A stretch of 36,841 nt of DNA, taken from positions 20,904 to 57,744 of the forward strand of contig QHWT01000085.1 in assembly GCA_003222675.1 (NCBI GenBank), read 5' to 3'. Source of the DNA: Acidobacteriota bacterium (GTDB taxonomy: Bacteria; Acidobacteriota; Vicinamibacteria; Vicinamibacterales; 2-12-FULL-66-21). The notes beneath the pieces were generated by a model. That model was not told the DNA's origin. It saw only the letters and a list, made by a program, of their open reading frames with translations, and did no database searches. Each line of letters starts with the position of its first letter. Position 1 is the stretch's first letter. Below are positions 1,158 to 23,725 of the stretch, in pieces. The position numbers and the translations under genes were made by a program.

Positions 1158-1529
1158 AGCGCGAGCAAAGCAATATCTGCGCCGCCACCATCAAAAAAAT
1201 GCGTTTGGCGAAACAGTCGAGGTGTGTGACGTTGAACGCCTCTTCACTACAGACCTTGCGAACTGCTTCGAATCCCTTCGACGATGAAGCGTCGGCCAAG
1301 CGGATTCCGGCCCTCCAGAAGCGCAGGCTGGTCGCCTTTCGCGCGGCCTGCTTCAACACGACGTTGTGCTCTGGTTTGATGACCGCTGGTCTTCGAATCG
1401 GCTAGTTGTCTTCGTCCATCGCGCGGCAGACAGAATTCATCTCCCGGGGCGACAAACGAACCGTAGTTGATACAAAACCCGTCGAATTCTGTTAGATCGA
1501 TGGGGGACCTCCTTTGCATCTTATCGAGT
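1158..1529. other. Intergenic region between divergent genes; contains a block shared with the paralogue's leader
   Basis: No gene I can support lies here. Short open frames exist on both strands but have no homology signature. The part at about 1420-1475 contains AGACAGAATTC followed by a C/G-rich block. The same motif and a similar succession of bases lie upstream of the inverted paralogue (about 14440-14500, minus strand), so part of the 5' region appears to have been duplicated together with the gene. Confidence 0.4.
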
Positions 1530-3086
1530 ATGCAAGTTCGCTCAATCAAGACTTCAAAGAGAGCAAGTGTTCTGGTGACGAGACTTCTCGTCGTCGGACT
1601 TGCGCTGGCAACAACGATTTTCTTCGGCTCTGGAGCGGCCACATCGCCGCTGGGGGCCCAGGCCGTCAGCCGTCCTCCCGTCGCGATTGGCGATCAGATC
1701 GCGGGGAGCTTCGGCGACGCGACGGGACATTCGGCGCAGTCGCATCTCGTCTACGCCGTCAATTCGCGTGTCTGGTGGTTGTTCACGCTGACATCGACCG
1801 CCGACTCAGAGGGCGGAACGAACCACGTCGTCAAGACATTCCGCTCTTCGGGTCCGGATCTCGCGACCGCGACGTGGATCGCCGGCGCCGACAGTCCTGC
1901 GGCGGCGGCGGCCAGTCCCAACGCATTCATGGGCGGCGGGCGCGCGCTCGGCGTCGCCTACCTCGATAACAGTCCCGTCGATGTCATTCACGCGGACATC
2001 AGCATGGCATTCGACGGGCAGGACGGCCGGACCGGGCATATCCGTGCCGTGGTGACCGGCACGTCGATCACATGGTCCTCCTGGAATTTCTTCGACGAGC
2101 CCGCGGCGATGTGGACGCTGCCGCACGGCAACACCATCGGTGTGTCCAGCGGAAAGTTCATCCATACGGGCGGCCCAATCCTCCAGCAGGAAGTGGATGC
2201 GAATGTCCGCAAGTCCAACAACGCTGACACCGGCAGTACGTGGGCGAACGGGTTCTCCGTCCCCGCCGTCATCGATGGATCGATGGTGAATCAGGACAAC
2301 GCGCTGGCGTTTGCGCCGCTGGCGAACAACGTGATGCTCGCGGTGTACGACAACGGCCAGGGCATCGAGCCGAACCTGACAAATCTTCGTTACAAGCGGT
2401 CGAACGCCGGAGGGGCCTGGAGCAGCATCGTCGTCGGATCGCAGGCGGGGGGCGACGGCAACGTCTTCTCGACAAACGCGACCATCGATCAGAACGACTG
2501 GGGACTCGTGTCGGTCAGCACGAATCAGGTCTACGGGTTCCGGCGCAAAGCGAACGGCAGCGGCATCGACGCCTCGTCCTATAACGTTGCGGCCAACACC
2601 TGGTCGGCGATGTCTCCTGCGCCGCCGGCGTTAGGCACCGGCCAGTCCTTCAAGGCCGGCGCGGGCCTGTTCGGCGCAACAGATGGCACGAGCGTCTGGG
2701 TATGCGTGATCAGTACCGACATCGCCAACTCGATTCTCTGCTCCAGGTTCGACGGTACAGCATGGACGCCGTGGTCGATCGTGGCCGGAACCGAGATCGG
2801 CAGTCAAAACCGCAACTACATTTCAGGATCCCCGCAGGTCGGCAATAGCGAGATCGGTTTGATCTGGACGGAAGGCACGTCGCTCTTCGACGTCGTCGCC
2901 ACTTCATTTGCCGCGACTCCCGATGTCAAGCCGCCCACGGTGACGCTCACGACGCCTGCGGACGGCGCGACGGTTACGGGGACGATCCCGATTTCTGCCA
3001 CGGCATCGGACAACGTTGGCGTCGCCGGTGTGCAGTTCCGGCTGGACGGACTGGATCTGGCCGTCGAGGTCACCGTGCCGCCGTAA
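1530..3086 (+). CDS. 5' half of a split secreted giant protein (signal peptide, beta-domain, Ig-like start), ended by in-frame TAA
   Basis: About 518 aa from the chosen ATG at 1530. This start gives basic residues, then VTRLLVVGLALATTIFFGSGAA, a clear signal peptide. The frame is open back to a TTG at 1467, but the paralogue on the minus strand has its signal peptide at the equivalent of 1530. The next ~420 residues form a repetitive beta-rich domain (WWLFTLTSTADS, HADISMAFDGQDGRTGHIRAV), perhaps propeller-like, of unknown function. A bacterial Ig-like domain then starts at PPTVTLTTPADGATV. That domain is cut by TAA at 3084-3086 where the paralogue has a Tyr codon (TAC), followed immediately by homologous sequence in the same frame. 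I read this as a nonsense mutation in a gene that should end at 5714. A truncated secreted product is possible. Confidence 0.8.
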   Translation: MQVRSIKTSKRASVLVTRLLVVGLALATTIFFGSGAATSPLGAQAVSRPPVAIGDQIAGSFGDATGHSAQSHLVYAVNSRVWWLFTLTSTADSEGGTNHVVKTFRSSGPDLATATWIAGADSPAAAAASPNAFMGGGRALGVAYLDNSPVDVIHADISMAFDGQDGRTGHIRAVVTGTSITWSSWNFFDEPAAMWTLPHGNTIGVSSGKFIHTGGPILQQEVDANVRKSNNADTGSTWANGFSVPAVIDGSMVNQDNALAFAPLANNVMLAVYDNGQGIEPNLTNLRYKRSNAGGAWSSIVVGSQAGGDGNVFSTNATIDQNDWGLVSVSTNQVYGFRRKANGSGIDASSYNVAANTWSAMSPAPPALGTGQSFKAGAGLFGATDGTSVWVCVISTDIANSILCSRFDGTAWTPWSIVAGTEIGSQNRNYISGSPQVGNSEIGLIWTEGTSLFDVVATSFAATPDVKPPTVTLTTPADGATVTGTIPISATASDNVGVAGVQFRLDGLDLAVEVTVPP

Positions 3087-3089
3087 ACG

Positions 3090-5714
<2,625 letters not shown>

Positions 5715-5745
5715 CACCGCAGGCTCGTTCATCAGCCTATTAAAG

Positions 5746-5784
5746 TGAAACGGCGATGCCGGTATTATCAGGGTCGCCGTTTCA
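5746..5784. terminator. Perfect 11-bp inverted repeat after the giant plus-strand gene
   Basis: TGAAACGGCGA at 5746-5756 is the exact reverse complement of TCGCCGTTTCA at 5774-5784, with a 17-nt loop. It lies 32 bp after the stop at 5714. There is no T-run, so this may be a weak intrinsic terminator, a transcript-stabilising hairpin, or a dispersed palindromic element. Confidence 0.5.
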
Positions 5785-5965
5785 GATAGACCGTACCGTC
5801 ACCCGTCTCGACACTCTGCCCCGCCGATAAAGTACGGGTGGCCCTGCCTTCAGCTATCATTCACGACGATCTGCCGTAAATGGTCGGCGACATGCGAAGC
5901 ATTTTAGTGGTCGACGCAAGATTTTTCGGCCAGGCGGACACGCGTTCAAGACTGGAGAGCTGCCG

Positions 5966-6877
5966 ATGAATCGTCGGAGGTTTTTGACTACTGCCGGAGC
6001 CGCCGTCGCTGCCGCCGCACTTCCCGACGCCCGTACGCGGCAGGGGCCTCCAGGAAGAGCCCCTCGCATGGGCTCGGGGCAGGCGCGTTTCCGAACGGGC
6101 CTGGTCGCTTACTCGTACCGACAGGCGCTCGAAGCCAAGACGATGACGTATGAAGATCTGATACGCATCGCGGTCGAGACGGGCACGGACGGCATCGACA
6201 TGACGGTGTACTGGTTGCCCAGCACGTCGGATGATTACCTGTTGCCGTTGCGCCGTCTCGCGTATGGGAATCGCGTCGAGATTTACAGCATCGGAACTCG
6301 CGTTCGGCTGGCGCAGCCCACCGCAGAACTGCGGGAACAACAGCTGATCGAGCTGCGCAAATGGCTGGATGTCGCGCAGAAGGTCGGCGCGACGCATGTG
6401 CGCGTGTTCGGGGGCGCGAAGCCGGAGGGGGCCACGCTCGACCAGGCGATCGGGTTTGCGGCCGAGACGCTGAAACGTGGCGCCGAGGCCGCCGGCGCTC
6501 GCGGATTGATCCTGGGTCTGGAGGACGATGGCGGCATCACTGATTTCGCCAAGGAGACGATTGAAATCGTCAAACGCGCCGACTCGCCGTGGGCAGGAAT
6601 GAACCTCGACATCGGAAACTTCCGGCCGCCGGCTGTGTACGATCAGATCGAAATGTCGATTCCCTATGCGGTCAGCACACACGTGAAAACCGAGGTGGCG
6701 CTCGACGATGGCAAGACACGCGCGCCGTTTGATCTGGACCGCGTGTTCAAGATGTTCGCGGCGCACGGCTTTCGTGGCTATATGGGGCTCGAGTACGAGG
6801 CATCGGGTGATCCGGCAACTGCGGTCCCGGACTATCTGCGCCGCCTGAAGGAATTGGCACTCAAGTACTCCGGTTGA
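5966..6877 (+). CDS. Tat-exported sugar phosphate isomerase/epimerase-like TIM barrel
   Basis: A 303-aa protein starting NRRRFLTTAGAAVAAAALP, a twin-arginine signal with Ala-rich core, so it is exported folded to the periplasm. The rest is an AP-endonuclease-2/xylose-isomerase-like (beta/alpha)8 barrel. Likely metal ligands at strand ends are Glu186 (LGLEDDGG), Asp215 (NLDIGN), His239 (STHVKTE) and Glu276 (GLEYEA), the usual E-D-H-E pattern of this superfamily. Such Tat-exported barrels are common in Acidobacteria and Planctomycetes, and their substrates are mostly unknown. A GGAG lies about 9 nt before the ATG. A 25-codon frame from about 5893 ends in a TGA overlapping this ATG, which could be a coupled leader but has no independent support. 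Family is firm; substrate is unknown. Confidence 0.85.
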   Translation: MNRRRFLTTAGAAVAAAALPDARTRQGPPGRAPRMGSGQARFRTGLVAYSYRQALEAKTMTYEDLIRIAVETGTDGIDMTVYWLPSTSDDYLLPLRRLAYGNRVEIYSIGTRVRLAQPTAELREQQLIELRKWLDVAQKVGATHVRVFGGAKPEGATLDQAIGFAAETLKRGAEAAGARGLILGLEDDGGITDFAKETIEIVKRADSPWAGMNLDIGNFRPPAVYDQIEMSIPYAVSTHVKTEVALDDGKTRAPFDLDRVFKMFAAHGFRGYMGLEYEASGDPATAVPDYLRRLKELALKYSG

Positions 6878-6945
6878 TGGAACTACAGCCTCAATCCATC
6901 TCGGCACACTGCTGGAATTCTTTTCGCCAAGAGGCACGGACGATG

Positions 6946-7720
6946 TCACGATGGCGACGGCAAATGCGATGATCTGCTGGGCGTCCGGCGTATTGGCGCG
7001 GTCTGCTTGAAATAGCGCTCGACAAAAGTGAGAAAGGTCGACCGGTTCGGGCCATCGGTGTGACCGCCGGCGTGCTGACGGAGCGCGACGTCTCCATCCG
7101 TCAGTGCGATCTCGATTGGCGGAAACTCGGTCGTGCCGAGATCCCTCTTCCCGAGCAGCAGGTACACTGGCCCGGCTCCGACCGCGGCGAGAAAGCTTCC
7201 TTTGGCATCCACCCAGGCGTCGTTAATGGATGCGGCAACGACGATGCCGGCCTCGTTGGAACGCGTCGCAATCGTTCCATCAGGATTCGTGTCTGGCCCC
7301 TTGCCCGCGCTGATGAAGACCGGTCGCGGGGCGCAGAGCGCGATCAGCTCGTGAGAATCCACCCGGCAGTGTGTCCCAGCGTCCGGCGTACTTGAGATAG
7401 TTGCCCGCCATCCAGTGATATTCGCTCGCGGCCACGATGTTCTCGATCGTCTCGCCGTACTTGCGGCGGTGCAGCTTCGCGCCGCTCTGCCCCGATGAGC
7501 TGACGCAGGCGATCGCGAACGTCGATCGAACGCCATCGTCACCAGCGTCGCCTTGCCCCAGCGTGAGTGCCCCTTCGAGACCGACGCGCTTCGCGTCGAC
7601 CGCTTTGTCGGTTTCGAAGTAGTCGAGCGCGCGGCCCGCGCCCCACGCGAGCGCGACGAGCGACCCCCAGTCGTCCAGCTTTCTCGGCTGTCCCTTGTTG
7701 AACTGCGAGGTCATCGTGGA
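6946..7720 (-). pseudogene. Glucuronoyl esterase (CE15-like) remnant, 5' truncated and frameshifted
   Basis: The C-terminal ~250 residues of a CE15-type 4-O-methylglucuronoyl esterase/acetyl xylan esterase are readable only by changing frame. In order on the minus strand: NKGQPRKLDDWGSLVALAWG, RALDYFETDKAVDAKRVGLEG, then after a shift GHSRWGKATLVTMAF (the G-x-S-R-x-G-K nucleophile motif), then back for FAIACVSSSG and ASEYHWMAGNYLKYAG, then another shift for DSHELIALCAPRPVFIS, GTTEFPPIE and GGHTDGPN. The breaks map to an extra G in 7570-7573, a missing base near 7519-7522 and an extra G in 7362-7364. The N-terminal ~150 residues expected for the family are absent, replaced by the CPBP fragment on the other strand. 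An intact enzyme would act on lignin-carbohydrate or uronate esters; this copy cannot. Confidence 0.85.
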
Positions 7721-7722
7721 GG

Positions 7723-8020
7723 CAGACTGCGGACCTACATCCTCGCGATCGCGGGACCCGCGATCTTCGTGGCGAGCCTGATCCTTACCGACCACGTGAC
7801 CGGCTTGGGCCGATTCATATCATCACGCCCGCTGGCGGTAACAGTTTCACTCGTTCTGATCGTCAACGGCGCTCTCGGAATGTTCCTGACACTCGGCGAG
7901 GAGTACGGCTGGCGAGGCTATCTTTTGCCGCACCTGCTTCCGCTCGGCGAGGTGAGAGCAACGCTCACGCTTGCTGCCATCTGGGCGGTCTGGCGCTCAT
8001 GGTACTCTGGTCCAATTTAG
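7723..8020 (+). pseudogene. CPBP (CAAX-like) intramembrane protease fragment
   Basis: An open frame whose part from about 7723 encodes hydrophobic segments RLRTYILAIAGPAIFVASLIL and LAVTVSLVLIVNGALGMFLTL, followed by GEEYGWRGYLLPHLLPLGEV. This is the E-E-x-x-x-R motif of CPBP-family glutamic intramembrane proteases. The family normally continues with a conserved Trp-His segment and further helices. Here the matching position reads IWAVWRSWYSG and the frame stops at 8018-8020. The 5' part is also missing, the upstream codons being antisense to the esterase remnant. This is a gene fragment joined end to end with two other broken or adjacent genes, not a working protease. Confidence 0.75.
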
Positions 8021-8068
8021 ATCGTGCGTCGCTTGGACTTGCCGTTCGCGCGTCGCGTCTTCATCCAC

Positions 8069-11032
8069 TTATCGCGGAACGATTTCGATCGCGACCATGT
8101 TCCATGAGTCGCTTGACGGTGCCGTGTCATAGATTGTGGCGACCGATCCGCCATTCGTGACTGGCGCGACGAACGCCTGCACCCAGAAAGTCTTGTTCGA
8201 GCCCTTGTCGATCCACTGATGCACGATCGCCTCGTCGGACGCAAGCGTTCGGCCGATTGACCGATCCGGATCGACGCCCACGCCGTAAATCAATGAGCCA
8301 GCCTGCGTCGTGATCAACGACACCATCGGCAGTGTGCGATGGCCGCTGGCGGGCACAGCGTCGCCGATTCCGCCCGCACCTCTGAACGCCACTATCGTCA
8401 ACGACTGATGGAACGTCGTGCTGCTCTGGGTCGCGGAGACAACGGCATTGACCAGCGGGCCGGGCGCGGTCGCCGTCCAGATTTCCGCCGTGCCGAACTG
8501 GGCGTTCGCACGCCTGACCAGCGCCCACGCGAGTCCGCCGCCCGAGATATTCACCGTCTGCCTGGTCGACCCGTTCGGTCCGTCCGAGGACGCAAACGCG
8601 ACGAGCAGTTCGCCGGCGCTGCCGGTGCTGAACGCCGGCGTGCTGATCGCGCCGTTACCGTCGACCGAGACGATGACGTCAACCTGTGGCGTCCCCAGGG
8701 CCTGCCCGGCGGAGAGGACGAGGTTCACCGCACCGCCGGCCGCCAGCGTCGCACCGGCGCTCGGTGTCTGACTGATCACGGATCCCGCCGGCACGGTCGT
8801 GCTCGGCGCGCTCGAGACAGTACCTACGGAAAGACCGGCGCTCGTGATCAACGTGCTCGCCGTGCTCTGCGTGAGGCCTACGACATTTGGCACGACGACG
8901 GTGATCTCGGGCGGAGCGGACGCCACGACGAGCGCGACGGCGCTGCTGGTCGCGACCTGTGTGCCCGCCGCTGGAGTTTGACTGATGACGGACCCCGGCG
9001 GCACGGTCGTGCTCAGCTCGGTGGTGACAGCACCCACCGTGAGTCCCGCATTCGCGATCGCGGTCGATGCCGCGGCCTGCGTGAGGCCGACGACGTTCGG
9101 GACGGTGATCTGCGGCGGCCCGGACGACACGAGGAGCGCGACGGCGCTGCCGTTCGCGACCTGCGTACCTGCCGCGGGCGTCTGACTGATCACAGAGCCT
9201 GACGGCGTGATCGTGCTCGAAACGGTCGTGACCGTACCCAGCGTCAGACCGGCGCCCGTGATCGCACTGCTCGCACCGGTCTGCGTCAGACCCACAACGT
9301 TGGGCACCGCAACCTGCGGCGGTCCGGACGAGACGACGAGCGAAACCGCGCTGCCGCTCGCAACCTGCGTCGCTGCCGCGGGTGTCTGACTGATAACGGA
9401 CCCGGATGGAACAGTCGTGCTCGACGTGGTTGTCACCGTGCCGACGACGAGTCCCGCATTCGCGATCGCGGTCGTCGCCGCAACCTGCGTCAGACCCAGA
9501 ACGTTGGGCACCGCAACCTGCGGCGGTCCGGACGAGACGACGAGCGAAACCGCGCTGCCGCTCGCAACCTGCGTCGCTGCCGCGGGCGTCTGACTGATGA
9601 CGGATCCGGACGGCATCGTGGTGCTCGACACGGTCGTGACCGTACCCAGCGTCAGACTGGCGCTCGTGATCGCACTGCTCGCACCGGTTTGCGTAAGACC
9701 CACAACGTTGGGCACCGCAACCTGCGGCGGTCCGGACGAGACCACGAGCGAAACCGCGCTGCCGCTCGCGACCTGCGTCGCTGCCGCGGGACTTTGACTG
9801 ATGATGGATCCGGACGGAACAGTCATGCTCGACGCTGTGGTTACCGTGCCGACAACGAGTCCCGCATTCGTGATCGCGGTCGTCGCCGCAGCCTGCGTAA
9901 GGCCCACAACGTTCGGCACCGCAACCTGCGGCGGTCCGGACGAGACGACGAGCGAAACCGCGCTGCCGCTCGCCACTTGTGTGAATGCCGCGGGCGTCTG
10001 ACTGATGACAATTCCCGATGGCACGATCGCGCTCGAGGCAGTCGTCACGTCACCGGCCGTGAATCCCGCGTCAGTTAGCGCCGTCGATGCCGCGGGCTGC
10101 GTGAGACCGACGAGGTTCGGGACCGTCGGCTTCGGCAACGCCGTTCCGACCAGAATTTCCACGAGCGCAAGATTCCAGCGATCGCTCGTAGGCCCGATAT
10201 CGTTGATCGTGACTGCGGTTCCAGCATCCGCCACTGGCGCGGCAAGTGACTGCACCCAGAAAGTGTAGGCAGCCGCCGCGTCGGTCCACTGGTGCACCAT
10301 CAACTGGTTCGGGCCCAGCATGCGCGCCGCCGCGCGGGCGGAATCGTCGGCCACGCCGTAAACAAGAGAGCCGGCCCCGGTCGTCGTGAGCGAACCGGTT
10401 GTCGCGCCGAACATCGCGCTGGCTCCGCCGGTGGCGCCCGTACCGCCGGCGCCCTGGAACGAAACGACCGTCAGCGATTGATGGAAGCCGCCCACGAGGC
10501 TTTGCGCTGAGGTTACCGTGGCATTCACCAGCGGTAATGGCGCGTAGGCTTTCCAGATCTCCGCGGTCCCGAACTGTGTGTTGACACGATTGACGAGCGT
10601 CCAGGTGAGCCCGGCGCCTGAAATGGCGAGCGTCTGCTTCGCCGACACGCTCGTCGGACCACCCGAAGACGCGAAGAGAACAAGCAGCTCGTTTGGCGCT
10701 TTCGTGCTGAACACCGGAGTCGTCAGGGTGCCGGCGGTCCCATCGGCGGAGATCGTGTTGTCAATCGTGAGCGCGGCAGCCGTCGGCGCTCCTGACGAGA
10801 CGAGCAGTGCGACGGCACTTCCGCCGGCGACGGGAGTGCCCGCCACCGGGCTCTGTTCAATAACGGATCCTGAGGGTACGACCGTGCTCGACGCGGTTGT
10901 CACGGCGCCAACTGTCAGGCCCGCATTCGTGATTGCTGTGGACGCGGCGGCCTGCGTGAGACCGACAGTGTTCGGCACTGCGATCTGCGGCGGGCCGGAC
11001 GATACGACGAGGGCGACGGCGCTGCCGATCAC
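8069..11032 (-). CDS. 3' half of the second split giant protein: PASTA repeats and two copies of a C-terminal beta domain
   Basis: A 987-aa frame that begins inside a PASTA repeat with a GTG whose last two bases overlap the TGA of the upstream half (GTGA). It has no signal peptide, so alone it would stay cytoplasmic. Order: end of one PASTA repeat, a full PASTA repeat, domain D1 (about 10140-10785; ELLVLFASSGGP, FGTAEIW, RMLGPNQLMVHQW, DRWNLALVEIL), seven PASTA repeats (about 8695-10123), and domain D2 (about 8072-8695; ELLVAFASSDGP, FGTAEIW, RTLASDEAIVHQW, SWNMVAIEIV). D1 and D2 are copies of a domain often seen at the C-terminus of bacterial Ig-like-repeat surface proteins. The frame should continue the 11029-14394 gene, and the break is a net 25-bp deletion. 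Coupled translation of the two halves through GTGA cannot be excluded. Confidence 0.75.
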   Translation of the reverse strand: MIGSAVALVVSSGPPQIAVPNTVGLTQAAASTAITNAGLTVGAVTTASSTVVPSGSVIEQSPVAGTPVAGGSAVALLVSSGAPTAAALTIDNTISADGTAGTLTTPVFSTKAPNELLVLFASSGGPTSVSAKQTLAISGAGLTWTLVNRVNTQFGTAEIWKAYAPLPLVNATVTSAQSLVGGFHQSLTVVSFQGAGGTGATGGASAMFGATTGSLTTTGAGSLVYGVADDSARAAARMLGPNQLMVHQWTDAAAAYTFWVQSLAAPVADAGTAVTINDIGPTSDRWNLALVEILVGTALPKPTVPNLVGLTQPAASTALTDAGFTAGDVTTASSAIVPSGIVISQTPAAFTQVASGSAVSLVVSSGPPQVAVPNVVGLTQAAATTAITNAGLVVGTVTTASSMTVPSGSIISQSPAAATQVASGSAVSLVVSSGPPQVAVPNVVGLTQTGASSAITSASLTLGTVTTVSSTTMPSGSVISQTPAAATQVASGSAVSLVVSSGPPQVAVPNVLGLTQVAATTAIANAGLVVGTVTTTSSTTVPSGSVISQTPAAATQVASGSAVSLVVSSGPPQVAVPNVVGLTQTGASSAITGAGLTLGTVTTVSSTITPSGSVISQTPAAGTQVANGSAVALLVSSGPPQITVPNVVGLTQAAASTAIANAGLTVGAVTTELSTTVPPGSVISQTPAAGTQVATSSAVALVVASAPPEITVVVPNVVGLTQSTASTLITSAGLSVGTVSSAPSTTVPAGSVISQTPSAGATLAAGGAVNLVLSAGQALGTPQVDVIVSVDGNGAISTPAFSTGSAGELLVAFASSDGPNGSTRQTVNISGGGLAWALVRRANAQFGTAEIWTATAPGPLVNAVVSATQSSTTFHQSLTIVAFRGAGGIGDAVPASGHRTLPMVSLITTQAGSLIYGVGVDPDRSIGRTLASDEAIVHQWIDKGSNKTFWVQAFVAPVTNGGSVATIYDTAPSSDSWNMVAIEIVPR
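8695..10123 (-). repeat. Array of seven PASTA repeats between domains D1 and D2
   Basis: Seven ~204-bp units, highly similar in DNA. The block encoding PPQVAVPNVVGLTQ and QVASGSAVSLVVSSG recurs almost unchanged at about 9311, 9519, 9721 and 9925. The second and fourth units resemble each other, as do the third and fifth (TTAI-NAGLVVGTVTT versus TGASSAIT), pointing to duplication of a two-unit, ~408-bp block. Confidence 0.85.
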
Positions 11033-12378
11033 TGACTGATGACGGATCCAGCCGGCACGATTGTGCTCGACACGCTCGTGATGGCGCTGACTGTGAGGCC
11101 CGCATTCGCGATCGCTGTCGATGCCGCCGCCTGTGTCAGACCGACGACATTGGGCACGACGACCTGCGGAGGTCCAGACGAGACAACCAGATTGACGGCG
11201 CTCGTCAACAGGATCTGCGTCCCGGCGGTCGGTGCCTCACTGATGACAATCCCCGACGGCACCGTCGTGCTCGACGCGTTCGTGACGGTCACGAGCGTAA
11301 GACCGGCGCTCAGGAGCGCACTCGTCGCCGCAGACTGCGTGAGGCCGACGACGTTTGGCACCGCGACCTGCGGCGATCCGGACGACACGACGAGCGCGAC
11401 GGCGCTGCCGCTCGCGACCTGTGTGGCTGCCGCGGGCGTCTGACTGATCACGGATCCCGACGGCACCGTCGGGCTCGACGCCGCCGTCACCGTACCAAGC
11501 GTAAGGCCGGCGCTCGTGATTGCGCTGGTCGCCGCGGCCTGCGTGAGACCGACAACGTTCGGCACCGCGTTCTGCTGCGCTCCGGACGAGACGACGAGCG
11601 CGACGTCGCTGCCGCCCGCGACCTGCATGCCCGCGGCGGGCGTCTGACTGATCACGGATCCCGACGGCACCGTCGTGCTCGACGCGGTCGTAACGGCGCC
11701 CAGCGTAAGACCGGCGCTCGTGATCGTGCTGGTCGCCGCAGCCTGTGTGAGACCGACGACGTTCGGGACCGCGACCTTCAGCGGTCCTGATGACACGACG
11801 AGCGCCACCGCGGTGCCGCTCGCGACCTGCGTGCCGGCCGCAGGTGTCTGGCTGATGATGGATCCCGACGGCACCGTCGTACTCGATGCCGTCGTGACGG
11901 CACCGACCTTGAGACCGGCGCCAGAGATCGCACTGGTTGCCGCGGTCTGCGTGAGGCCGACGACGTTCGGCACCGCAACCTGCGATGGTCCGGACGAGAC
12001 AACCAGCGCGACGGCACTGCCGCTCGCGACCTGCGTGCCTGCCGCCGGTGTCTGACTGATGACAGATCCCGACGGCACCGTCGTGCTCGACGCGGTGGTC
12101 ACGGTGCCAACCGTGAGTCCCGCGTTCGCGATCGCCGTCGATGCCGCCGCCTGCGTCAGGCCTACGACATTCGGTACTACCGCTGGAGGTCCTGACGAGA
12201 CCACGAGATCAACAGCCGAAACAGCCGCCACCTCCGTGCCGCCCGAAGGACTCTGGCTGATGACCGATCCCGCGGATATTGTGGTGCTTGATGCGGTGCT
12301 CACCGTTCCGACTGTCAGGCCGGCGGCGCCGATCGCGGCAGCGGCTCCCGCCTGTGCAAGGCCGACCACATTGGGCAC
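10785..12378 (-). repeat. Array of eight PASTA repeats, the seventh damaged
   Basis: Repeats run from VPNVVGLAQ at about 12378 down to about 10785 in 204-bp steps. The seventh reads to GSVISQ and then meets TGA at 11029-11031. The sequence that should follow (counterpart of TPAAGTQVASG) is missing about 25 bp, after which GSAVALVVSSG resumes in another frame. Confidence 0.85.
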
Positions 12379-14394
12379 AATGTTGACGACGTCGATTGTC
12401 ACGCTCGCGGTGGCGATCGTGAACTTCGTCGTGTCCGCAGGCGTGAACGTCATCGACAGTGTCTGCGCCAGCCCGCTTGGCAAAACGGTGCCGGCCGGCG
12501 GAGTGTAGACGAACGTTCCCGGCGTATTGGCTGCCGCGTTCAACTGCGCGGCGCCGAGCGGCGTGCCGAACGCGATCTTGGCGGGCGGCGCCCACGTGAT
12601 GATCGGCGTTGTCAGGTTCGTCACCGTCACTATCACCGGCGCGGAGCTCGCAATGCTGCCGGCGCTGTCGCGGGCGATCGCTGTCAAAGAATGAGTGCTA
12701 TTGGTACTCGTGGCGGTGTTCCAGACCATCGAGTACGGCGCGCGGGTGACTTCAGGGCCGAGATTCGCACCGTCCAACTGGAACTGGACGCCCGCGACGC
12801 CGAGAGCGGCGGAGGCGATTGCGGAGATCGACGTCTGGCCCGAAACCGTCGCTCCATTCGCCGGTGTAGCCACCGACACCGCAGGCGGCGGCGCATCGGC
12901 TGTGACCAACGACGTCGTCACGACGTCGTACAGCGACGTGCCCTCCGTCCAGATCAGGCCGACCTGGTTGTTGCCAACCTTCGGGGATCCCGAAATGTAG
13001 TTGCGGCTCTGAATGCCGACGTCGGTGCCCTGGACAGCGGCCCACGCCGTCCACGCTGTGCCATCGAACTTGGAATAAAGAATGGAGTTAGCCAGGTCCG
13101 TGTTGACGATGAACACCCACAGGCTTATGCCGTCGGTTGCGCCAAACAGTCCGGCGCCCGCCTTGAACGACTGGCCCGCGCCAAGAAGCGGCGGCGCGGG
13201 TGACATGGTCGAAAAGCTGTTGGCGGCGACGTTATAGGTCGCGGCGTCGATCCCGTTTCCCGTGGCTTTGCGCCTGAAGGCGTAGATCTGCGTCGTGCTG
13301 ACCGGGACGAGCGCCCAGTCGTTCTGATCGATGACCGCGTTCGACGAGAAGACGTTTCCGTCGCCTCCCAACTGCGATCCGATCACGATGCTGCTCCATG
13401 TGCCTCCGGCGTTCGATCGCTTGTAGCGAAGGTTCGTCTGATTGGGCTCGACATTCTGGCCGTTGTCGTACACCGCGAGCATCACGTCGTTCGCCAGCGG
13501 CGCAAACGATACGGCGTTGTTCTGATTCAGCATCGATCCGTCGATCACGGCGGGGACGGAGAACCCGCTCGCCCACGTGCTGCCAGTGTCGGCGTTATTC
13601 GACTTGCGTGCGTTCGCATCCACTTCCTGCTGGAGAATCGGACCGCCCGTGTGGATGAACTTTCCGCTGGACACGCCGATGGTGTTGCCGCGGGGCAGCG
13701 TCCACGTCGCCGCCGGCTCGTCGAAGTAATTCCAGGACGCCCAGACGATCGATGTGTCGGTCACGACAGCGCGGATGTGCCCCGTCCGGCCGTCCTGTCC
13801 GTCGAAGGCCATGCTGATGTCCGCATGGATGACGTCGACGGGACTGTTGTTCAGATACGCGATTCCGAGCGCGCGGCCGCCGCCCAGGAAGCCGTCGGGG
13901 CCGGCGGCCGCGGCGGGCGGGCTGTCTGCCCCCGGGGTCCACGTCGCCGTCGCGAGATCCGGACCCGACGAGCGAAATGACTTGACGATGTGGTTCGATC
14001 CGCCATCGGAATCGGCCGTAGAGGTCAGCGTAAACAGCCACCACACACGCGAATTGGCCGCGTAAACAAGGTGCGACTGCGCCGAATGTCCTGTCGCATC
14101 GTCGAAGCTCCCGGCGATCTGACTTCCAATCGTTATCGGAAGACGGGCGCTCGACTGCGCAGCGATCGGCGATGTGGCCGCTCGCAAGGCCATGGTCCGT
14201 GCCGAAAGCTCCCCAAGCGGATTTCGATGGTCGGCGGCCCCTGCCGAACTGCCCATGAACGGCGATTTCCATGCCGAGATCACGGGTGGAGTGACGACGA
14301 ACATCGCTGCCGCCAATGCGAGTCCGAGGATGAGAAGTCTCCTCACGAGAGCCCTCGCCGCTGTCTCCGACCTCTTGAACGCACGGCTTGCCAT
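11029..14394 (-). CDS. 5' half of the second split giant secreted protein (paralogue of 1530-5714)
   Basis: About 1121 aa from ATG 14394 (the frame is open to 14442, but the signal peptide ALVRRLLILGLALAAAMFV fits a start at 14394, mirroring the plus-strand paralogue). After the signal and a ~60-residue low-complexity stretch comes the same ~420-aa beta-rich domain as in the paralogue, mostly identical residue by residue (WWLFTLTSTADSDGG, HADISMAFDGQDGRTGHIRAV, NTIGVSSGKFIHTGGPILQQEV). An Ig-like domain (PAVSVATPANGATVSG), a second beta domain and seven PASTA repeats follow. The frame ends at TGA 11029-11031 inside the seventh PASTA repeat because of a ~25-bp deletion; the remainder is the 8069-11032 frame. 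Restored, the protein would be about 2100 aa with 15 PASTA repeats. Likely an extracellular or cell-surface protein; function unknown. Confidence 0.8.
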   Translation of the reverse strand: MASRAFKRSETAARALVRRLLILGLALAAAMFVVTPPVISAWKSPFMGSSAGAADHRNPLGELSARTMALRAATSPIAAQSSARLPITIGSQIAGSFDDATGHSAQSHLVYAANSRVWWLFTLTSTADSDGGSNHIVKSFRSSGPDLATATWTPGADSPPAAAAGPDGFLGGGRALGIAYLNNSPVDVIHADISMAFDGQDGRTGHIRAVVTDTSIVWASWNYFDEPAATWTLPRGNTIGVSSGKFIHTGGPILQQEVDANARKSNNADTGSTWASGFSVPAVIDGSMLNQNNAVSFAPLANDVMLAVYDNGQNVEPNQTNLRYKRSNAGGTWSSIVIGSQLGGDGNVFSSNAVIDQNDWALVPVSTTQIYAFRRKATGNGIDAATYNVAANSFSTMSPAPPLLGAGQSFKAGAGLFGATDGISLWVFIVNTDLANSILYSKFDGTAWTAWAAVQGTDVGIQSRNYISGSPKVGNNQVGLIWTEGTSLYDVVTTSLVTADAPPPAVSVATPANGATVSGQTSISAIASAALGVAGVQFQLDGANLGPEVTRAPYSMVWNTATSTNSTHSLTAIARDSAGSIASSAPVIVTVTNLTTPIITWAPPAKIAFGTPLGAAQLNAAANTPGTFVYTPPAGTVLPSGLAQTLSMTFTPADTTKFTIATASVTIDVVNIVPNVVGLAQAGAAAAIGAAGLTVGTVSTASSTTISAGSVISQSPSGGTEVAAVSAVDLVVSSGPPAVVPNVVGLTQAAASTAIANAGLTVGTVTTASSTTVPSGSVISQTPAAGTQVASGSAVALVVSSGPSQVAVPNVVGLTQTAATSAISGAGLKVGAVTTASSTTVPSGSIISQTPAAGTQVASGTAVALVVSSGPLKVAVPNVVGLTQAAATSTITSAGLTLGAVTTASSTTVPSGSVISQTPAAGMQVAGGSDVALVVSSGAQQNAVPNVVGLTQAAATSAITSAGLTLGTVTAASSPTVPSGSVISQTPAAATQVASGSAVALVVSSGSPQVAVPNVVGLTQSAATSALLSAGLTLVTVTNASSTTVPSGIVISEAPTAGTQILLTSAVNLVVSSGPPQVVVPNVVGLTQAAASTAIANAGLTVSAITSVSSTIVPAGSVISQ

Positions 14395-14659
14395 ACCCTG
14401 AGGACTGCAAGCCAGTCGCCTGACAGGTTCAGGGAGAATCAACGATTAGTCACCTCGCAAGAGGAATTCTGTCTCCCGCTCGCGGTGAACGACGACCAAG
14501 CTTGGTACTGAAGTACCGCAGGTGACGGCCGCGAAAGACCCACCGTTCGATATGTCACGCAGCCATGCGAATCGGCGGGTCGCGGGTCACATTTCGGGCG
14601 AACCCCGCGCATCCGGCAGGCGCAGGGATGGCGGAGAATCGAGAGGTTCGAGCTTCTCC

Positions 14660-14688
14660 TTGACAGCTTAGGAAAGCGGCCGTAGCAT
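14660..14688 (+). promoter_or_regulatory. Sigma70-type promoter of the padR-permease operon
   Basis: TTGACA at 14660-14665, a 17-bp spacer, and TAGCAT at 14683-14688, placed 27 bp before the GTG of the PadR gene. The spacing is ideal and the -35 box is consensus. Confidence 0.7.
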
Positions 14689-14696
14689 TCTCCTAA
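14668..14696. promoter_or_regulatory. Inverted repeat overlapping the promoter, candidate PadR operator
   Basis: TTAGGA at 14668-14673 and TCCTAA at 14691-14696 form a dyad that brackets the spacer and -10 box, with further AGGAG/CTCCT copies nearby. Its position suits autorepression by the PadR protein encoded next. That role is inferred from location, not from a known site. Confidence 0.45.
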
Positions 14697-14714
14697 CTGG
14701 CATAGGAGAGCCGA

Positions 14715-15050
14715 GTGGCACCGCAGGCTGATCTCTTACCGGGCACGCTGGATCTGCTGATCTTGAAGGCGGTTTCGCTCGGGCCGCAACATGGTTATGG
14801 CGTGTTGCTTCGCATCGAGCAAATCTCCGGCGGCGCACTGGCCATCGAGCAGGGCGCGCTCTATCCAGCCCTGTATCGCCTGGAACACCAGGGATTGCTC
14901 GATACGGACTGGGGCGCTTCCGACAACAACCGCAGGGCCAAGTTCTACCGGCTCACTGCCGCCGGCCGAAAGCGGTTGAAGACCGAAAGCGAACGTTGGA
15001 ATCGCACGGCTCTCGCGATCAACACGGCACTCCGCGCACACGAGGCGTAA
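14715..15050 (+). CDS. PadR-family transcriptional regulator
   Basis: A 111-aa winged-helix protein with the PadR core: LLPGTLDLLILKAVSLGPQHGYGVLLRIEQ, then QGALYPALYRLEHQGLL (recognition helix region) and RRAKFYRLTAAGRKRL (beta wing). It is of the short PadR subfamily, with a brief C-terminal helix for dimerisation. GTG start at 14715, preceded by AGGAG at 14704-14708. The stop overlaps the next start (TAATG), so it is coupled to the ABC-type permease. PadR-ADOP pairs of this kind are repeated many times in Acidobacteria genomes. It probably represses its own operon through the dyad just upstream and responds to an unknown effector. Confidence 0.92.
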   Translation: MAPQADLLPGTLDLLILKAVSLGPQHGYGVLLRIEQISGGALAIEQGALYPALYRLEHQGLLDTDWGASDNNRRAKFYRLTAAGRKRLKTESERWNRTALAINTALRAHEA

Positions 15051-17755
15051 TGCCGCTGCTGGCCCGCATGCGTTCGTTCTGGCGCAACGCGCTCCACCGT
15101 TCCGAAATGGAGCGGGATATGTCGGACGAATTGCGGTTCCATCTTGCGCGGCGCGCCGAGGATCTGGTCGAGCGCCGCGGCCTCGCGCCAGAAGAAGCCA
15201 TGCGGATCGCGCGACTCGAGTTCGGATCGGTGGAGAAGTACAAGGAAGAGGCTCGTCAGAGTCTGGGACTCAAGCTGCTGGACGAATTGCGCGCCGATCT
15301 GCGATATGGGCTTCGCGCCTTCGGCAAGAGCAAAGGCTTCACGGTGGCTGCCGTCGCAACGCTCGCGCTCGGCATCGGCGCGAACACGGCGATCTTCAGC
15401 GTGATGGATTCGGCCATGCTGCGGCTGCTTCCGGTTCAACGGCCACAGGAGCTCGCCGCCGTCCTTCTGCAAACGCCAGGGCAGCCCGCCGAGGACGGCT
15501 TCACGAATGCGCTTTGGGAAGCCATACGCGATCGGCAGGACGTGTTCTCCGGCGTTTTCGCCTGGAGCGCCCCCAAGCCGCTCGCCTTCGCCCGGGGCGG
15601 CGCGATGCGCGACGTGCAGGGATTGATGGTCAGTGGCGACTACTTCAACACGCTCGGCGTCACGCCGGCCGCCGGACGACTGATCGTCGCGGCCGACGAC
15701 CGGCGCGGGTGCACACCTGTCGCCGTGCTCAGTTACGGCTTCTGGCAGGCGCACTTCGGGGGAGCGGACAGCGCCCTCGGCAGTACCGTCTCTCTGGAGC
15801 AGCAACCGTTCCAGGTGATTGGAGTCACCCCGCGGCATTTCTATGGCGTTAACGTCGGCAAGAATTTCGACGTCGCAATCCCACTCTGCGCGAGCGCACT
15901 CTTCGACACGAGGAACCTTGACAGCCGCTCGCGGTGGTGGCTGAGCATCATCGGTCGCGTGAAGGCTGGAGTTACACCCGAACAAATGAAGGCGCGGCTT
16001 GGAGTGCTTTCGCCTCACGTCATGATCGCCGCGCTGCCCGACTGGGATGCAGCCGGGCAGCAACGGTTCCTGGCGAGGAAACTGGATACCGCGCCGGCGG
16101 GAACCGGATCTTCCGATCTGCGCAGCGCCTTCCGGGAATCCCTGAACATTCTGATGGCCATCGTTGCGCTCGTGCTCTCGATCGCGTGCGCGAACATTGC
16201 CAGCCTGATGCTGGCGAGGGCCACCACCTCCGGGAAAGAGATTGCGATTCGCAAAGCCCTCGGTGCCTCGCGAAGCCGCCTGATTCGGCAACTGCTCACG
16301 GAATCCGCGCTGCTTTCGTCAGCGGGGGCCGCGCTCGGCCTGGTCTTCGCAAAATGGGGAAGCGCACTGCTGGTGCGAAAACTGTCAACTGGTCGAAATC
16401 CTCTCTTTCTCGATCTCTCCCTTGACGGCCGCGTCCTGGGATTCACCGTCATCATCACCATCGCGACGACAGTGCTGATTGGCCTGCTGCCGGCTCTCCG
16501 TTCGACGCGGATTGCGTTGATGGAAGCCATGAAGGCGAGGTCAGTCGCTGGAAGCGAGCAGCGGTCGCGCTTTCGCTTGGGAAAGTGGATTGTGGCGGGC
16601 CAAGTCGCGCTGTCACTCGTGCTGCTGATCGGCGGCGGCCTGCTGCTGCGCACGTTCGTGAAACTGTTGACGCTCGATCTTGGCTTCGATCGACACAACG
16701 TGCTGGTGGTGAGTGCGAAGCCGCCATGGTTTGCCGCTGACACAGCGAAGCTGCCGCCGGAGCAACGGCAGGCAGCCTACGACGAGATCGGGCAGCGGCT
16801 GCGCGCAATCCCGGGTGTGATTTCCGTGGCCCGCTCGTTTACCACGCCGATCGGCGACGACAACTGGTTCAGTGACATTCAAACGAATGTCGCGAACCCG
16901 CCCACCGGCGACGAGGCAACCACCTATTTCAACTTCGTGACGCCCGGATATTTCGCGACCATGCGCATGCCCCTCCTGGCGGGCCGGGACCTCGATGAAC
17001 GCGATACAAACCATTCTTCGCTCGTCGCCGTCGTGAATGAGACCCTGGCGCGGAGGTTCTTCCCCGGCGTGAATGCATTAGGAAGGCTCTTCCGCTGGGG
17101 CGACAAGCGGAATCCGGTGGAGGTCGTCGGGATCGTGAAGGATTCGAAGTACGAGTCGGTGCGGCAAGTCCCGCCCCCCACGGTGTTCCTGCCAGCGACT
17201 CAGGTGCCGCCGCACGCGGCGGCGGAAGAATTTGCGGTGCGAACAGCGGTTCCGCCCGCCACCGTCATAGCCGCAGTTCGACAAGCGGTGACGGCGGTGA
17301 GTCGAGATATCCCCGTGAAGTTTCACACGGTCGCGGAGGAAGTCGACGACAACCTCGTTCAGGAGCGGCTGGTGGCAACGCTCTCTGGCTTCTTCGGACT
17401 GCTGGCGTTGCTGCTGGCCATGATCGGACTGTATGGCGTACTCAGCTATCTCGTGACGGAGCGGCAGGTCGAATTCGGCGTTCGCATGGCTCTGGGAGCG
17501 CAGCCCGCGTCGATTCTGCGGCTCGTGATGAGAGAGGTCGTCGTGGTGCTGGCCGCAGGGCTTGCGACCGGGCTCGCGGTCGCCTTCGCAAGCGTCACGC
17601 TGCTGGAACGGATGCTGTTCGGACTCGAGCCTCGCGACACGATGACGATGGTGACCTCGGTTTGTCTGCTTTCCACCATGGCCTTGCTGGCGGCGTACCT
17701 GCCCGCGCGCCGCGCCACGCGGATGAACCCGATGGCGGCGCTTCGGTCCGAATGA
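15050..17755 (+). CDS. ADOP-type MacB-like ABC transporter permease
   Basis: A 901-aa protein; the start ATG at 15050 overlaps the PadR stop (TAATG). Residues 1-80 form the helical N-terminal extension typical of acidobacterial duplicated orphan permeases (MERDMSDELRFHLARRAEDL...EEAMRIARLEFG). Then comes DLRYGLRAFGKSKGFTVAAVATLALGIGANTAIFSVMD, the first membrane segment of a MacB/FtsX half. A periplasmic core domain, an FtsX block with three helices (LNILMAIVALVLSIACANIASLMLARAT) and a second, complete half follow (IVAGQVALSLVLLIGGGLLLRTF ... LLALLLAMIGLYGVLSYLVTERQVEFGVRMALGA), ending MNPMAALRSE. No ATPase is encoded next to it, as usual for ADOPs. Likely role is inner-membrane export or mechanotransmission for lipids or peptides; substrate unknown. 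Confidence 0.92.
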   Translation: MPLLARMRSFWRNALHRSEMERDMSDELRFHLARRAEDLVERRGLAPEEAMRIARLEFGSVEKYKEEARQSLGLKLLDELRADLRYGLRAFGKSKGFTVAAVATLALGIGANTAIFSVMDSAMLRLLPVQRPQELAAVLLQTPGQPAEDGFTNALWEAIRDRQDVFSGVFAWSAPKPLAFARGGAMRDVQGLMVSGDYFNTLGVTPAAGRLIVAADDRRGCTPVAVLSYGFWQAHFGGADSALGSTVSLEQQPFQVIGVTPRHFYGVNVGKNFDVAIPLCASALFDTRNLDSRSRWWLSIIGRVKAGVTPEQMKARLGVLSPHVMIAALPDWDAAGQQRFLARKLDTAPAGTGSSDLRSAFRESLNILMAIVALVLSIACANIASLMLARATTSGKEIAIRKALGASRSRLIRQLLTESALLSSAGAALGLVFAKWGSALLVRKLSTGRNPLFLDLSLDGRVLGFTVIITIATTVLIGLLPALRSTRIALMEAMKARSVAGSEQRSRFRLGKWIVAGQVALSLVLLIGGGLLLRTFVKLLTLDLGFDRHNVLVVSAKPPWFAADTAKLPPEQRQAAYDEIGQRLRAIPGVISVARSFTTPIGDDNWFSDIQTNVANPPTGDEATTYFNFVTPGYFATMRMPLLAGRDLDERDTNHSSLVAVVNETLARRFFPGVNALGRLFRWGDKRNPVEVVGIVKDSKYESVRQVPPPTVFLPATQVPPHAAAEEFAVRTAVPPATVIAAVRQAVTAVSRDIPVKFHTVAEEVDDNLVQERLVATLSGFFGLLALLLAMIGLYGVLSYLVTERQVEFGVRMALGAQPASILRLVMREVVVVLAAGLATGLAVAFASVTLLERMLFGLEPRDTMTMVTSVCLLSTMALLAAYLPARRATRMNPMAALRSE

Positions 17756-17920
17756 ATCGTGCGGCCGCGATCACGAAAGGACTCTGCGCCCATTGTCAAA
17801 ATAGCGGCTGCGCTCTTCAAAAGCGTCCAGCTTGCACCTGCCTGCAATTCGAACCATAGTGTTCGTTTCGAGCAAGACCAATTCGTCACGTTCTTGTTAC
17901 GCAGCAACCAGGAGGTTTCG

Positions 17921-18403
17921 ATGGCGAAAGCAGCGAAAGCCGTGCCCGAGGGTTATCACACCATCACGCCGCAGCTGACGTTGGACAACGCCGCGCAGAC
18001 GATTGATTGGTACAAGAAAGCGCTCGGCGCCGAGGAACTGAGCCGAAGTGTGGGGCCCGACGGCAAGATCATGCACGCCGAGCTCAAGATCGGCAACTCA
18101 CGCTTCATGATGAACGACGTCATGCACGGCGGGAAGGGACCCCAGGCTTTTGGGGGATCACCTGCGTCGTTGTGGCTCTTTGTGGAGAACAGCGATTCAC
18201 TGTTCAATCGGGCCGTAGGCGCGGGCGCGAAGGTCCAGACGCCCCTGGCCGATCAGTTCTGGGGCGATCGGGCCGGCGCCGTCGCCGATCCGGCAGGCTA
18301 CACGTGGTGGATAGCGACACGTAAGGAAGATCTCACGCCGGCGGAAATGCAGCAGCGCGCGGCGGAATTCTTCAAGCAGATGGCGCAGGGGGCGCCGCAC
18401 TAA
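17921..18403 (+). CDS. VOC-superfamily (PhnB/glyoxalase-like) protein
   Basis: A 160-aa cytoplasmic protein starting at ATG 17921, fixed by AGGAGG at 17910-17915; the frame is open upstream to 17759 but that part has no homology features. The fold is the paired beta-alpha-beta-beta-beta module: HTITPQLTLDNAAQTIDWYKKALGAEE, then GKIMHAELKIGNSRFMMND, PASLWLFVENSDSLFNRAVGAGAKV and DRAGAVADPAGYTWWIAT. This is the PhnB-like branch of the VOC family, not a classical glyoxalase I. A C-terminal helix (PAEMQQRAAEFFKQM) follows. Substrate unknown. It appears to be monocistronic and ends before a bidirectional terminator. Confidence 0.9.
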   Translation: MAKAAKAVPEGYHTITPQLTLDNAAQTIDWYKKALGAEELSRSVGPDGKIMHAELKIGNSRFMMNDVMHGGKGPQAFGGSPASLWLFVENSDSLFNRAVGAGAKVQTPLADQFWGDRAGAVADPAGYTWWIATRKEDLTPAEMQQRAAEFFKQMAQGAPH

Positions 18404-18419
18404 TCTCCGGTGCGGTGCG

Positions 18420-18469
18420 GATGCTGACGCGCGTGCTCGCTTCATCGAGACCAACACCGCGTCAGCATC
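18420..18469. terminator. Bidirectional terminator-like hairpin between convergent genes
   Basis: GATGCTGACGCG at 18420-18431 is the exact reverse complement of CGCGTCAGCATC at 18458-18469 (12-bp stem, 26-nt loop). It lies between the ends of the VOC gene (plus) and the TonB receptor (minus). No T-run, so the termination role is inferred from position. Confidence 0.55.
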
Positions 18470-18483
18470 ATTCGCGACGTCGG

Positions 18484-20562: not shown

Positions 20563-20646
20563 CTGCGCGGACCTCCCGCCGTGGATGCCGGCGTGAAGGA
20601 CAGTGAATCGTAGCCAGCCACACTCGATACTACCAGTGCTAGTACG

Positions 20647-20860
20647 TTAGTACCCGCTCGAATCCGGAGCGTTCGTGGCGTGGTCTCCCAGGATCTGCAC
20701 GATCTCCGGCCGCGTGAAAAAGGCGGCCCATCCGATCGCGTCGCTGTCGTGTTTGCTGTCGCGGATGTTCGGATTGGCGCCGGCTGCCAGGAGTACGCGC
20801 ACGATCTCGGCCTGGCCAGGTCCAGCAGGAGCGAGATGATCTCCCGACCTTTACGCGGAC
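20647..20860 (-). pseudogene. Ankyrin-repeat protein C-terminal remnant
   Basis: On the minus strand, 20811-20647 reads AEIVRVLLAAGANPNIRDSK, then IGWAAFFTRPEIVQILGDH, and stops at TAA 20647-20649. These are the last ankyrin repeats and C-terminal cap of an ankyrin-repeat protein. About 10 codons further upstream in another frame, GREIISLLLDLA looks like an earlier ankyrin helix, so a deletion plus frameshift has joined two repeats. No start codon or complete repeat array is present. The relic sits directly upstream of the TonB receptor gene at 20562 and may contribute to its promoter region. Confidence 0.7.
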
Positions 20861-21022
20861 TGCCGGCCGCCCTTGGCGGCGCAACAAGAATGGTAACGCC
20901 GCGGTCCGAGCAGCAAATACTCCCCTGCCGATTGCCGTGACGAAACCGCAGGAGCCGTGGCCGGAACTCCGCGGTCATTGCCCACGTTCTCGCGAAAAAC
21001 ACGGGAAAAGTTCACTTATCCC

Positions 21023-21052
21023 TTGACCGACCATTTTGGTCGGATATATCCT
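21023..21052 (+). promoter_or_regulatory. Promoter with a perfect 17-bp palindrome in the spacer
   Basis: TTGACC at 21023-21028 and TATATC/TATCCT at 21045-21052 make a plausible -35/-10 pair (16-18 bp apart). The palindrome CCGACCATTTTGGTCGG (21027-21043; 7-bp arms, TTT centre) fills the spacer, the classic place for a repressor. The dyad resembles TetR-family operators in general form. It drives toward the siderophore-type receptor at 21254. Confidence 0.55.
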
Positions 21053-21108
21053 AAGGCACGTTCTGATTGGCTGGCGACGGGCACTCGTCGTGCTGCCGAG
21101 ATGAAAAT

Positions 21109-21162
21109 GCCCGTCTGGTGCGGAAACACCCGACGGGCCGTCGAACCTGGTCTGGCGAGACC
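21109..21162 (+). promoter_or_regulatory. Structured 5' leader: two hairpins before the TonB receptor gene
   Basis: GCCCGTCTGGTG (21109-21120) pairs with CACCCGACGGGC (21127-21138) around a CGGAAA loop, with one internal mismatch. GGTCT (21149-21153) then pairs with AGACC (21158-21162) around GGCG. Both lie in the ~200-nt leader between the promoter and the receptor start. They could form an RNA regulatory element; no known riboswitch class fits. Confidence 0.4.
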
Positions 21163-21253
21163 TATCAACCGCTTGCGCGCTTGACGTGTCCGACGTCCGC
21201 CATTGTACGGACGGGCAGATGTCGGCGCAACTGCGTTTAGGAGTACTGCGCTT

Positions 21254-23677: not shown

Positions 23678-23725
23678 GGCGAGCGCCAGCGCCGCTTCGA
23701 CATGGAACCGGCACATAATGAGCGG

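What the first reader, a model, noticed from the sequence alone, without database searches (positions are those of the whole stretch)
1530..14394. Inverted pair of giant PASTA/Ig surface proteins, both independently broken, with swapped C-terminal modules
The two genes share signal peptide, a ~420-aa N-domain with very high identity, Ig-like domain, second beta domain and PASTA repeats, but end in different modules: a duplicated ~190-aa domain with Ala-Pro linker versus D1/D2. They face each other about 2.4 kb apart. This suggests duplication with inversion followed by module shuffling through the repeats, and then loss of both copies by different mutations. Loss of both could reflect relaxed selection, antigen-like variation, or sequence errors.
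Basis: partly seen in the sequence, partly recalled or inferred. Interest (0 to 1): 0.7.

Follow-up and report, generated by a model that had tools for sequence, protein, structure and literature searches.

The report
Broken inverted pair of surface-protein genes
Two related, very long genes for repeat-rich secreted proteins sit head-on in a draft bacterial genome, each with one recent-looking break, while a close relative keeps both intact side by side; it looks like ordinary gene-family turnover with some copying between the two genes.

Summary
The pair is real. Gene A (1530-5714, +) and gene B (14394-8069, -) share a 413-aa N-domain (81% aa), Ig-like, beta and PASTA modules, and end in different tails. 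A has one in-frame TAA (3084-3086); B has one net 25-nt shortfall inside a 204-nt PASTA unit (near 11031). A same-genus MAG (G001:C124) has both genes open, in direct tandem, with the same two kinds of tail. So the tails differed before the species split, and no recent tail swap is seen. The N-domains tell another story: the data reject orthologous pairing and group A with B, which points to gene conversion; B as donor is suggested but not settled. dN/dS is 0.16 and there is no further stop, so the breaks are recent (under about 0.03 neutral substitutions per site) or artefacts. Remnants of two other genes between A and B favour real local decay. The N-domain is rare: 3 of 162 order genomes, 1 of 396 in a phylum draw. 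Likely role: secreted glycan- or wall-binding protein; the duplicated tail weakly resembles CBM35 folds. Ordinary family turnover with conversion; the lesions cannot be verified without reads.

The parts
1530..5714 (+). Gene A, interrupted: leader, N-domain, Big_7, beta domain, 5 PASTA, duplicated ~190-aa tail
   Evidence: ORFs 1467-3086 and 3090-5714 in one frame; Pfam
1680..2918 (+). N-domain of A (413 aa)
   Evidence: alignment A1
2934..3203 (+). Big_7 Ig-like domain of A, holding the stop
   Evidence: PF17957 E 1.1e-12 on the part before the stop; start, end inferred from the start of the beta domain
3084..3086 (+). in-frame TAA that interrupts A
3210..3437 (+). beta domain of A (MBG-like; name recalled)
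3441..4460 (+). 5 PASTA units of A, 204-nt period
4479..5045 (+). tail domain 1 of A (189 aa), CBM35-like by a weak model
5046..5129 (+). Ala-Pro linker
   Evidence: translation
5130..5699 (+). tail domain 2 of A (190 aa)
8069..14394 (-). Gene B, interrupted: leader, N-domain, Big_7, beta domain, PASTA block, D1, PASTA block, D2
   Evidence: ORFs 14442-11029 and 11032-8069
12898..14136 (-). N-domain of B (413 aa)
12616..12885 (-). Big_7 of B
12382..12609 (-). beta domain of B
10775..12378 (-). first PASTA block of B, 8 units, one of them shortened
11029..11034 (-). site of the net 25-nt shortfall and resulting TGA in B
   Evidence: unit spacing 179 instead of 204
10154..10774 (-). D1 module
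8690..10123 (-). second PASTA block of B, 7 units
8081..8683 (-). D2 module
5966..6877 (+). open xylose-isomerase-like TIM barrel (AP_endonuc_2) between A and B
   Evidence: PF01261 E 1.4e-23
6946..7795 (-). glucuronoyl-esterase remnant in two frames
   Evidence: PF22244 E 1e-6 on 7795-7283; frame jump near 7353; the 7542-6946 part has no Pfam hit and its assignment is by eye
7731..8020 (+). Rce1-like/CPBP remnant
   Evidence: PF02517 E 3.8e-4, profile 10-52 of 93, 21.1 bits, just under the 22.4 cut-off

Best explanation
A and B are an old paralogous pair of secreted, repeat-rich, modular proteins: leader, 413-aa beta-rich N-domain, Ig-like domain, beta domain, PASTA stalk, binding tail. The pair and its two kinds of tail existed before the two species of this genus split; in the relative both genes are open and in direct tandem. 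In the window's lineage the copies face each other. After the split, part of the N-domain was homogenised between A and B (gene conversion; B as donor of the middle of A's domain is the likeliest reading). Each copy then took one inactivating change very recently, in a stretch that also holds other gene remnants. Likely role (inferred): cell-surface or secreted glycan/wall-binding proteins, A ending in twin CBM35-like domains, B in two D modules. Shown: homology, modules, breaks, grouping of the N-domains, open relatives. Inferred: secretion, ligand, donor, order of rearrangements, and that the breaks are real.
For: Both genes open with the same kinds of tail in G001:C124 (Pfam on both). AU test rejects (A,r1),(B,r2) for the N-domain, p 0.012 aa and 0.0004 nt. 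Nucleotides of codons 110-300 favour ((A,B),r2), p-AU 0.987, and reject the pairing at 7e-6. Site patterns AB:Ar1:Ar2 = 55:30:26, binomial p 3e-4. dN/dS A-B 0.16 in the N-domain, 0.30 in the 117 codons after A's stop, 0.18 in PASTA 1-4. No further stop in A (4,179 nt) or in B's two pieces (6,324 nt): three extra expected at about 0.033 and 0.022 neutral substitutions per site, indels not counted. Remnants between A and B. In-frame stops are rare elsewhere: 1 of 150 scored MacB_PCD matches, and 1 of 40 PASTA matches, that one being B's own.
Against: No reads, so the lesions may be assembly flaws. A crude codon-usage scan gave 17 candidate frame jumps in the other 20 G000 stretches scanned (about 311 kb), so frame disruptions are not confined to this locus. 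G001 is one MAG with coverage 3.3 in the contig name, and the only genome found with the pair. The donor is not settled: whole-domain amino acids prefer ((A,B),r1), p-AU 0.93, and reject ((A,B),r2) at 0.038, while nucleotides leave both open; the region limits were chosen after seeing the sliding values. Codons 0-110 reject the pairing only at 0.048 and leave ((A,r1),B) open (0.25); codons 300-408 do not reject it (0.18). Downstream of the N-domain A-B dS (0.73-0.84) is near between-species values. The N-domain model failed (pLDDT 32.5).
Confidence: 0.6

Rival explanations
1. The two breaks are assembly or sequencing artefacts and both genes are intact in the living organism.
For: One lesion each in 4.2 and 6.3 kb, low dN/dS, no other stops; B's shortfall lies in a repeat array that is hard to assemble; candidate frame jumps elsewhere in the draft; open copies in the relative.
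Against: A's lesion is a stop codon within an otherwise unshifted frame, not an indel; B's 25 nt is not a multiple of the 204-nt unit, so simple in-register repeat collapse does not give it; in-frame stops are rare elsewhere (1 of 150); neighbouring remnants are decayed too.
Confidence: 0.33
2. An invertible tail switch: recombination between the inverted N-domains flips the ~10 kb between them and exchanges the tails of A and B.
For: Inverted geometry with the tails inside the invertible stretch; grouping of A's and B's N-domains suggests that the arms do recombine.
Against: Arms only 82% identical with a longest exact stretch of 32 nt; both copies interrupted; in the relative the same tails sit in direct tandem. 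A recombinase was not specifically sought.
Confidence: 0.05
3. One reading: recent duplication with inversion, then tail shuffling through the PASTA repeats, then loss.
For: A and B share PASTA units partly in order (A 3849 and B 11973 are each other's best within G000, 86%), whereas the relative's A-type gene has one PASTA and no Big_7 match.
Against: Tails pair across species; A-B dS 0.67 is not recent.
Confidence: 0.08
4. The halves are still made as separate proteins, for example by re-initiation at the start codon just after A's stop.
For: ATG at 3090, just after the stop in A; GTG overlapping the stop in B; constraint on both sides of A's stop.
Against: The downstream halves start inside an Ig domain (A) and a PASTA unit (B) and show no leader by eye; no signal-peptide program was run.
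Confidence: 0.06

Closest known systems
PASTA repeat proteins (PF03793), best known from Stk1/PknB kinases
   Same: tandem PASTA units well over the curated cut-off
   Different: no kinase family in the Pfam listing; 5 and 15 units between beta domains. The NCBIfam PknB_PASTA_kin matches fall on the PASTA part
Bacterial Ig-like (Big_7, PF17957) modular surface proteins
   Same: Big_7 after the N-domain in A, B, the relative's B-type gene and G057
   Different: N-domain without a match over cut-off in Pfam (one sub-cut-off DUF905 stretch, 14.0 of 22.3 bits) or any listed in NCBIfam or PDB sequences
Family 35/6/61 carbohydrate-binding modules
   Same: the tail-domain model has CBM35 chains among its best Foldseek matches (E 2.4e-3 to 1.6e-2, TM by target up to 0.57)
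   Different: no PDB sequence match below E 0.19; model pLDDT 58.6; none of 1,343 matches at E <= 0.001, and the top row is not a CBM
Giant repeat ORF of the same genome (C123, C107 end)
   Same: carries a third N-domain (53%) and a D module
   Different: thousands of residues of beta repeats, and no PASTA match listed in it
Invertible surface-protein loci such as Campylobacter fetus sap (recalled)
   Same: inverted related genes with shared 5' parts
   Different: low arm identity and broken genes; no evidence of switching

Membership tests
PASTA-domain proteins (PF03793) | PASTA units over the curated score | tested here: met
Stk1/PknB PASTA kinases | Ser/Thr kinase domain | tested here: not met
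   no kinase family in the Pfam listing; NCBIfam matches start at model position 359 or later in the best stretches
CBM35-type carbohydrate-binding modules | sequence or confident fold similarity | tested here: inconclusive
   weak Foldseek matches of a pLDDT 58.6 model; no convincing PDB sequence match
CBM35-type carbohydrate-binding modules | glycan binding | not testable with these tools
   needs a binding assay
Invertible (phase-variable) locus | long near-identical inverted arms | tested here: not met
   82% identity, longest exact match 32 nt
Invertible (phase-variable) locus | both orientations in a population | not testable with these tools
   no reads
Pseudogene pair | disrupted frames with open relatives | tested here: met
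Pseudogene pair | relaxed selection (raised dN/dS, further lesions) | tested here: not met
   dN/dS 0.16-0.30 and no further stops; compatible with very recent loss

The most novel reading that the evidence does not exclude
The inverted pair is a slow exchange device: the facing N-domains recombine by conversion and now and then by inversion, so that two different binding tails can be moved between two promoters and leaders, with broken forms kept as silent partners that conversion could rewrite.
Probability: 0.06. Interest if true: 0.6.

Novelty: new member of a known kind. Interest (0 to 1): 0.3.

Why it matters
It shows how large modular surface-type genes turn over in a little-studied acidobacterial group: a duplicated pair keeps its tails while the N-domains are partly homogenised, and both copies can be interrupted within a short time. 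The N-domain is a rare family with no match over cut-off in the libraries searched (Pfam, NCBIfam, PDB sequences). If the tail binds glycans, it is a small testable module.

Tried and rejected
N-domain fold: a 4-row AlphaFold model failed (pLDDT 32.5) and was not searched; a propeller fold is only a guess from Y/F...W-type repeats seen by eye. Mobile origin: no N-domain match in plasmids, phages or IMG/VR and no tRNA in the four stretches scanned. Synteny with G001: a neighbour of its pair (DUF1592-like; name recalled) maps to G000:C35:38292-40850, with the next gene beside it, and the TIM barrel of the window has only a 27% match in G001; the other flank of the relative's pair is off its contig. 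A DNA comparison of window 14600-34500 with G001 gave one long match (G001:C278, 77%) and 37 shorter ones, 40 of 376 candidates scored. Frame-jump scan: 23 stretches, that is the window, 20 others of G000 (15 of the 20 fetched) and 2 of G001; 3 kb are counted twice; it flags in-frame neighbouring genes as stops in many stretches and did not flag B's own break, so it is only a rough background. Rfam on C107:1-20000: nothing. In one search the pattern caught no PASTA unit of the relative, so the best matches given there are within G000 only; one search lists 7 of the relative's units and Pfam counts 9. The relative's A-type gene has a sub-cut-off ToxA_N score without a matched stretch (16.5 of 27 bits), taken as chance. 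Papers: only search listings with starts of abstracts were seen, none opened (one search listed none); none listed appeared to concern this family. PHROGs and PADLOC were not searched.
Full report
WHERE. The window is G000:C107:20904-57744, in a 7.16-Mb draft of 152 contigs, 99.9% complete with 3.9% contamination. Its same-genus relative G001 holds the contig recorded as an Acidobacteria MAG, so the window is taken to be acidobacterial.

WHAT IS THERE. Gene A runs 1530-5714 on +, gene B 14394-8069 on -; their 3' ends are 2,354 bp apart. A consists of two ORFs in one frame separated by a single TAA at 3084-3086. B consists of two ORFs in different frames; the break lies in the PASTA unit starting at 11157, where the unit spacing is 179 instead of 204. 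Pfam finds Big_7 in both, 5 PASTA in A, and 7 + 8 PASTA stretches in B's two pieces. A ends in two ~190-aa domains (63% alike) joined by an Ala-Pro linker; B carries D1 and D2 (52% alike). Inverted arms 1633-2908 / 12908-14183 match at 82%.

RELATIVES. The N-domain occurs in 2 of 40 'relatives' genomes (G000 and G001), 3 of 162 order genomes (G000, G001, G057) and 1 of 396 in a phylum draw (G000 itself). No match in plasmids, phages or IMG/VR at the settings used nor in PDB sequences. G001:C124 carries both genes open on one strand: L024:337-3354 (1005 aa: N-domain, beta, 1 PASTA, duplicated tail, no Big_7 match) and L024:4014-8408 (1464 aa: N-domain, Big_7, beta, 9 PASTA by Pfam, one D module). 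G057 has one stand-alone gene (L069:9099-11930, 943 aa) with N-domain, Big_7, an fn3-like stretch under its cut-off, Big_7 and a D tail, and a second N-domain match cut by a contig end. A third N-domain of G000 and one of G001 sit in giant repeat ORFs. The D module occurs in 8 of 161 order genomes, in most of these more than once. The ~190-aa tail domain occurs in 1 of 199 genomes of a phylum draw (G000 itself), where it has two further places, one of them in two pieces.

HISTORY. If A and B had simply descended from the pair in the common ancestor, A's N-domain should group with the relative's A-type gene (r1) and B's with its B-type gene (r2). It does not: A-B 81% aa, dS 0.67; A-r1 74%, dS 0.88; B-r2 74%, dS 0.99; r1-r2 72%, dS 0.90. 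AU tests reject that pairing for the whole domain (0.012 aa, 0.0004 nt). Who gave to whom is less clear. Whole-domain amino acids prefer ((A,B),r1) (0.93) and reject ((A,B),r2) (0.038); whole-domain nucleotides leave both open (0.38 and 0.72). By region, on nucleotides and with limits chosen after the sliding values: codons 110-300 reject the pairing at 7e-6 and prefer ((A,B),r2), the tree expected if B overwrote A; codons 0-110 reject it at 0.048, prefer ((A,B),r1) and leave ((A,r1),B) open; codons 300-408 do not decide. The tails do pair across species: A1-r1_1 66% and A2-r1_2 68% against A1-A2 63%; B_D2-r2_D 56% against B_D1-B_D2 52%. So the tails predate the split and the N-domains were partly homogenised afterwards. 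Orientation cannot be polarised: one flank of the relative's pair is off its contig, and the other maps to C35 in G000.

AGE AND REALITY OF THE BREAKS. dN/dS is 0.16 in the N-domain, 0.30 in the 117 codons after A's stop, 0.18 in PASTA 1-4. Neither gene has another stop; three more would be expected after about 0.033 (A) or 0.022 (B) neutral substitutions per site, indels not counted, against an A-B dS of 0.67. Loss, if real, is therefore very recent. For real loss: in-frame stops are rare in G000 (1 of 150 scored MacB_PCD matches, 301 candidates), and the gap between A and B holds two remnants, a glucuronoyl esterase in two frames and a partial Rce1-like gene just under its cut-off. For artefact: no reads, B's break lies in a repeat array, and a rough scan gave 17 candidate frame jumps in the other 20 G000 stretches scanned, about 311 kb. 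I put real loss at about 2 to 1 (a judgement, not a computed figure).

FUNCTION. Leaders followed by beta-type modules suggest secretion (inference from sequence; no signal-peptide program was run). PASTA domains are known for peptidoglycan binding (recalled). The tail-domain model (pLDDT 58.6, pTM 0.65) has CBM35, CBM61, CBM32 and CBM6 chains among its 50 listed Foldseek matches, none at E <= 0.001; insecticidal-toxin chains (the top row) and BIRC6 chains also appear near the top. A glycan-binding tail is thus a lead, not a result. The N-domain model failed.

VERDICT. A real, fairly old paralogous pair with a conversion signal and one break in each copy.

Noticed in passing
G000:C107:57996-62477 (L027:7997-12478, -) and G000:C123:57043-72624 (L028:2044-17625, +): Tail (about 1,490 aa, FG-GAP-like end; name recalled) and head (5,194 aa) of giant beta-repeat ORFs, both running off contig ends; possibly one gene of more than 6,600 residues next to this window, its head carrying the third N-domain. 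The join was not tested.
   Followed up: partly
window 33433-36840 (-): One long ORF with glycosyltransferase 2, methyltransferase and polysaccharide deacetylase domains; a stretch between the first two looks out of frame by eye.
   Followed up: no
G000:C35:70082-70332 (L074): Isolated remnant of the ~190-aa tail domain in two pieces between two open ORFs.
   Followed up: partly
G000:C148:67966-68532 (L075): Open 850-aa ORF ending in one copy of the same ~190-aa tail domain, on a different front part.
   Followed up: no
window 26958-27368 (-): Short XdhC-like ORF (136 aa) matching the XdhC_CoxI domain, possibly a fragment.
   Followed up: no
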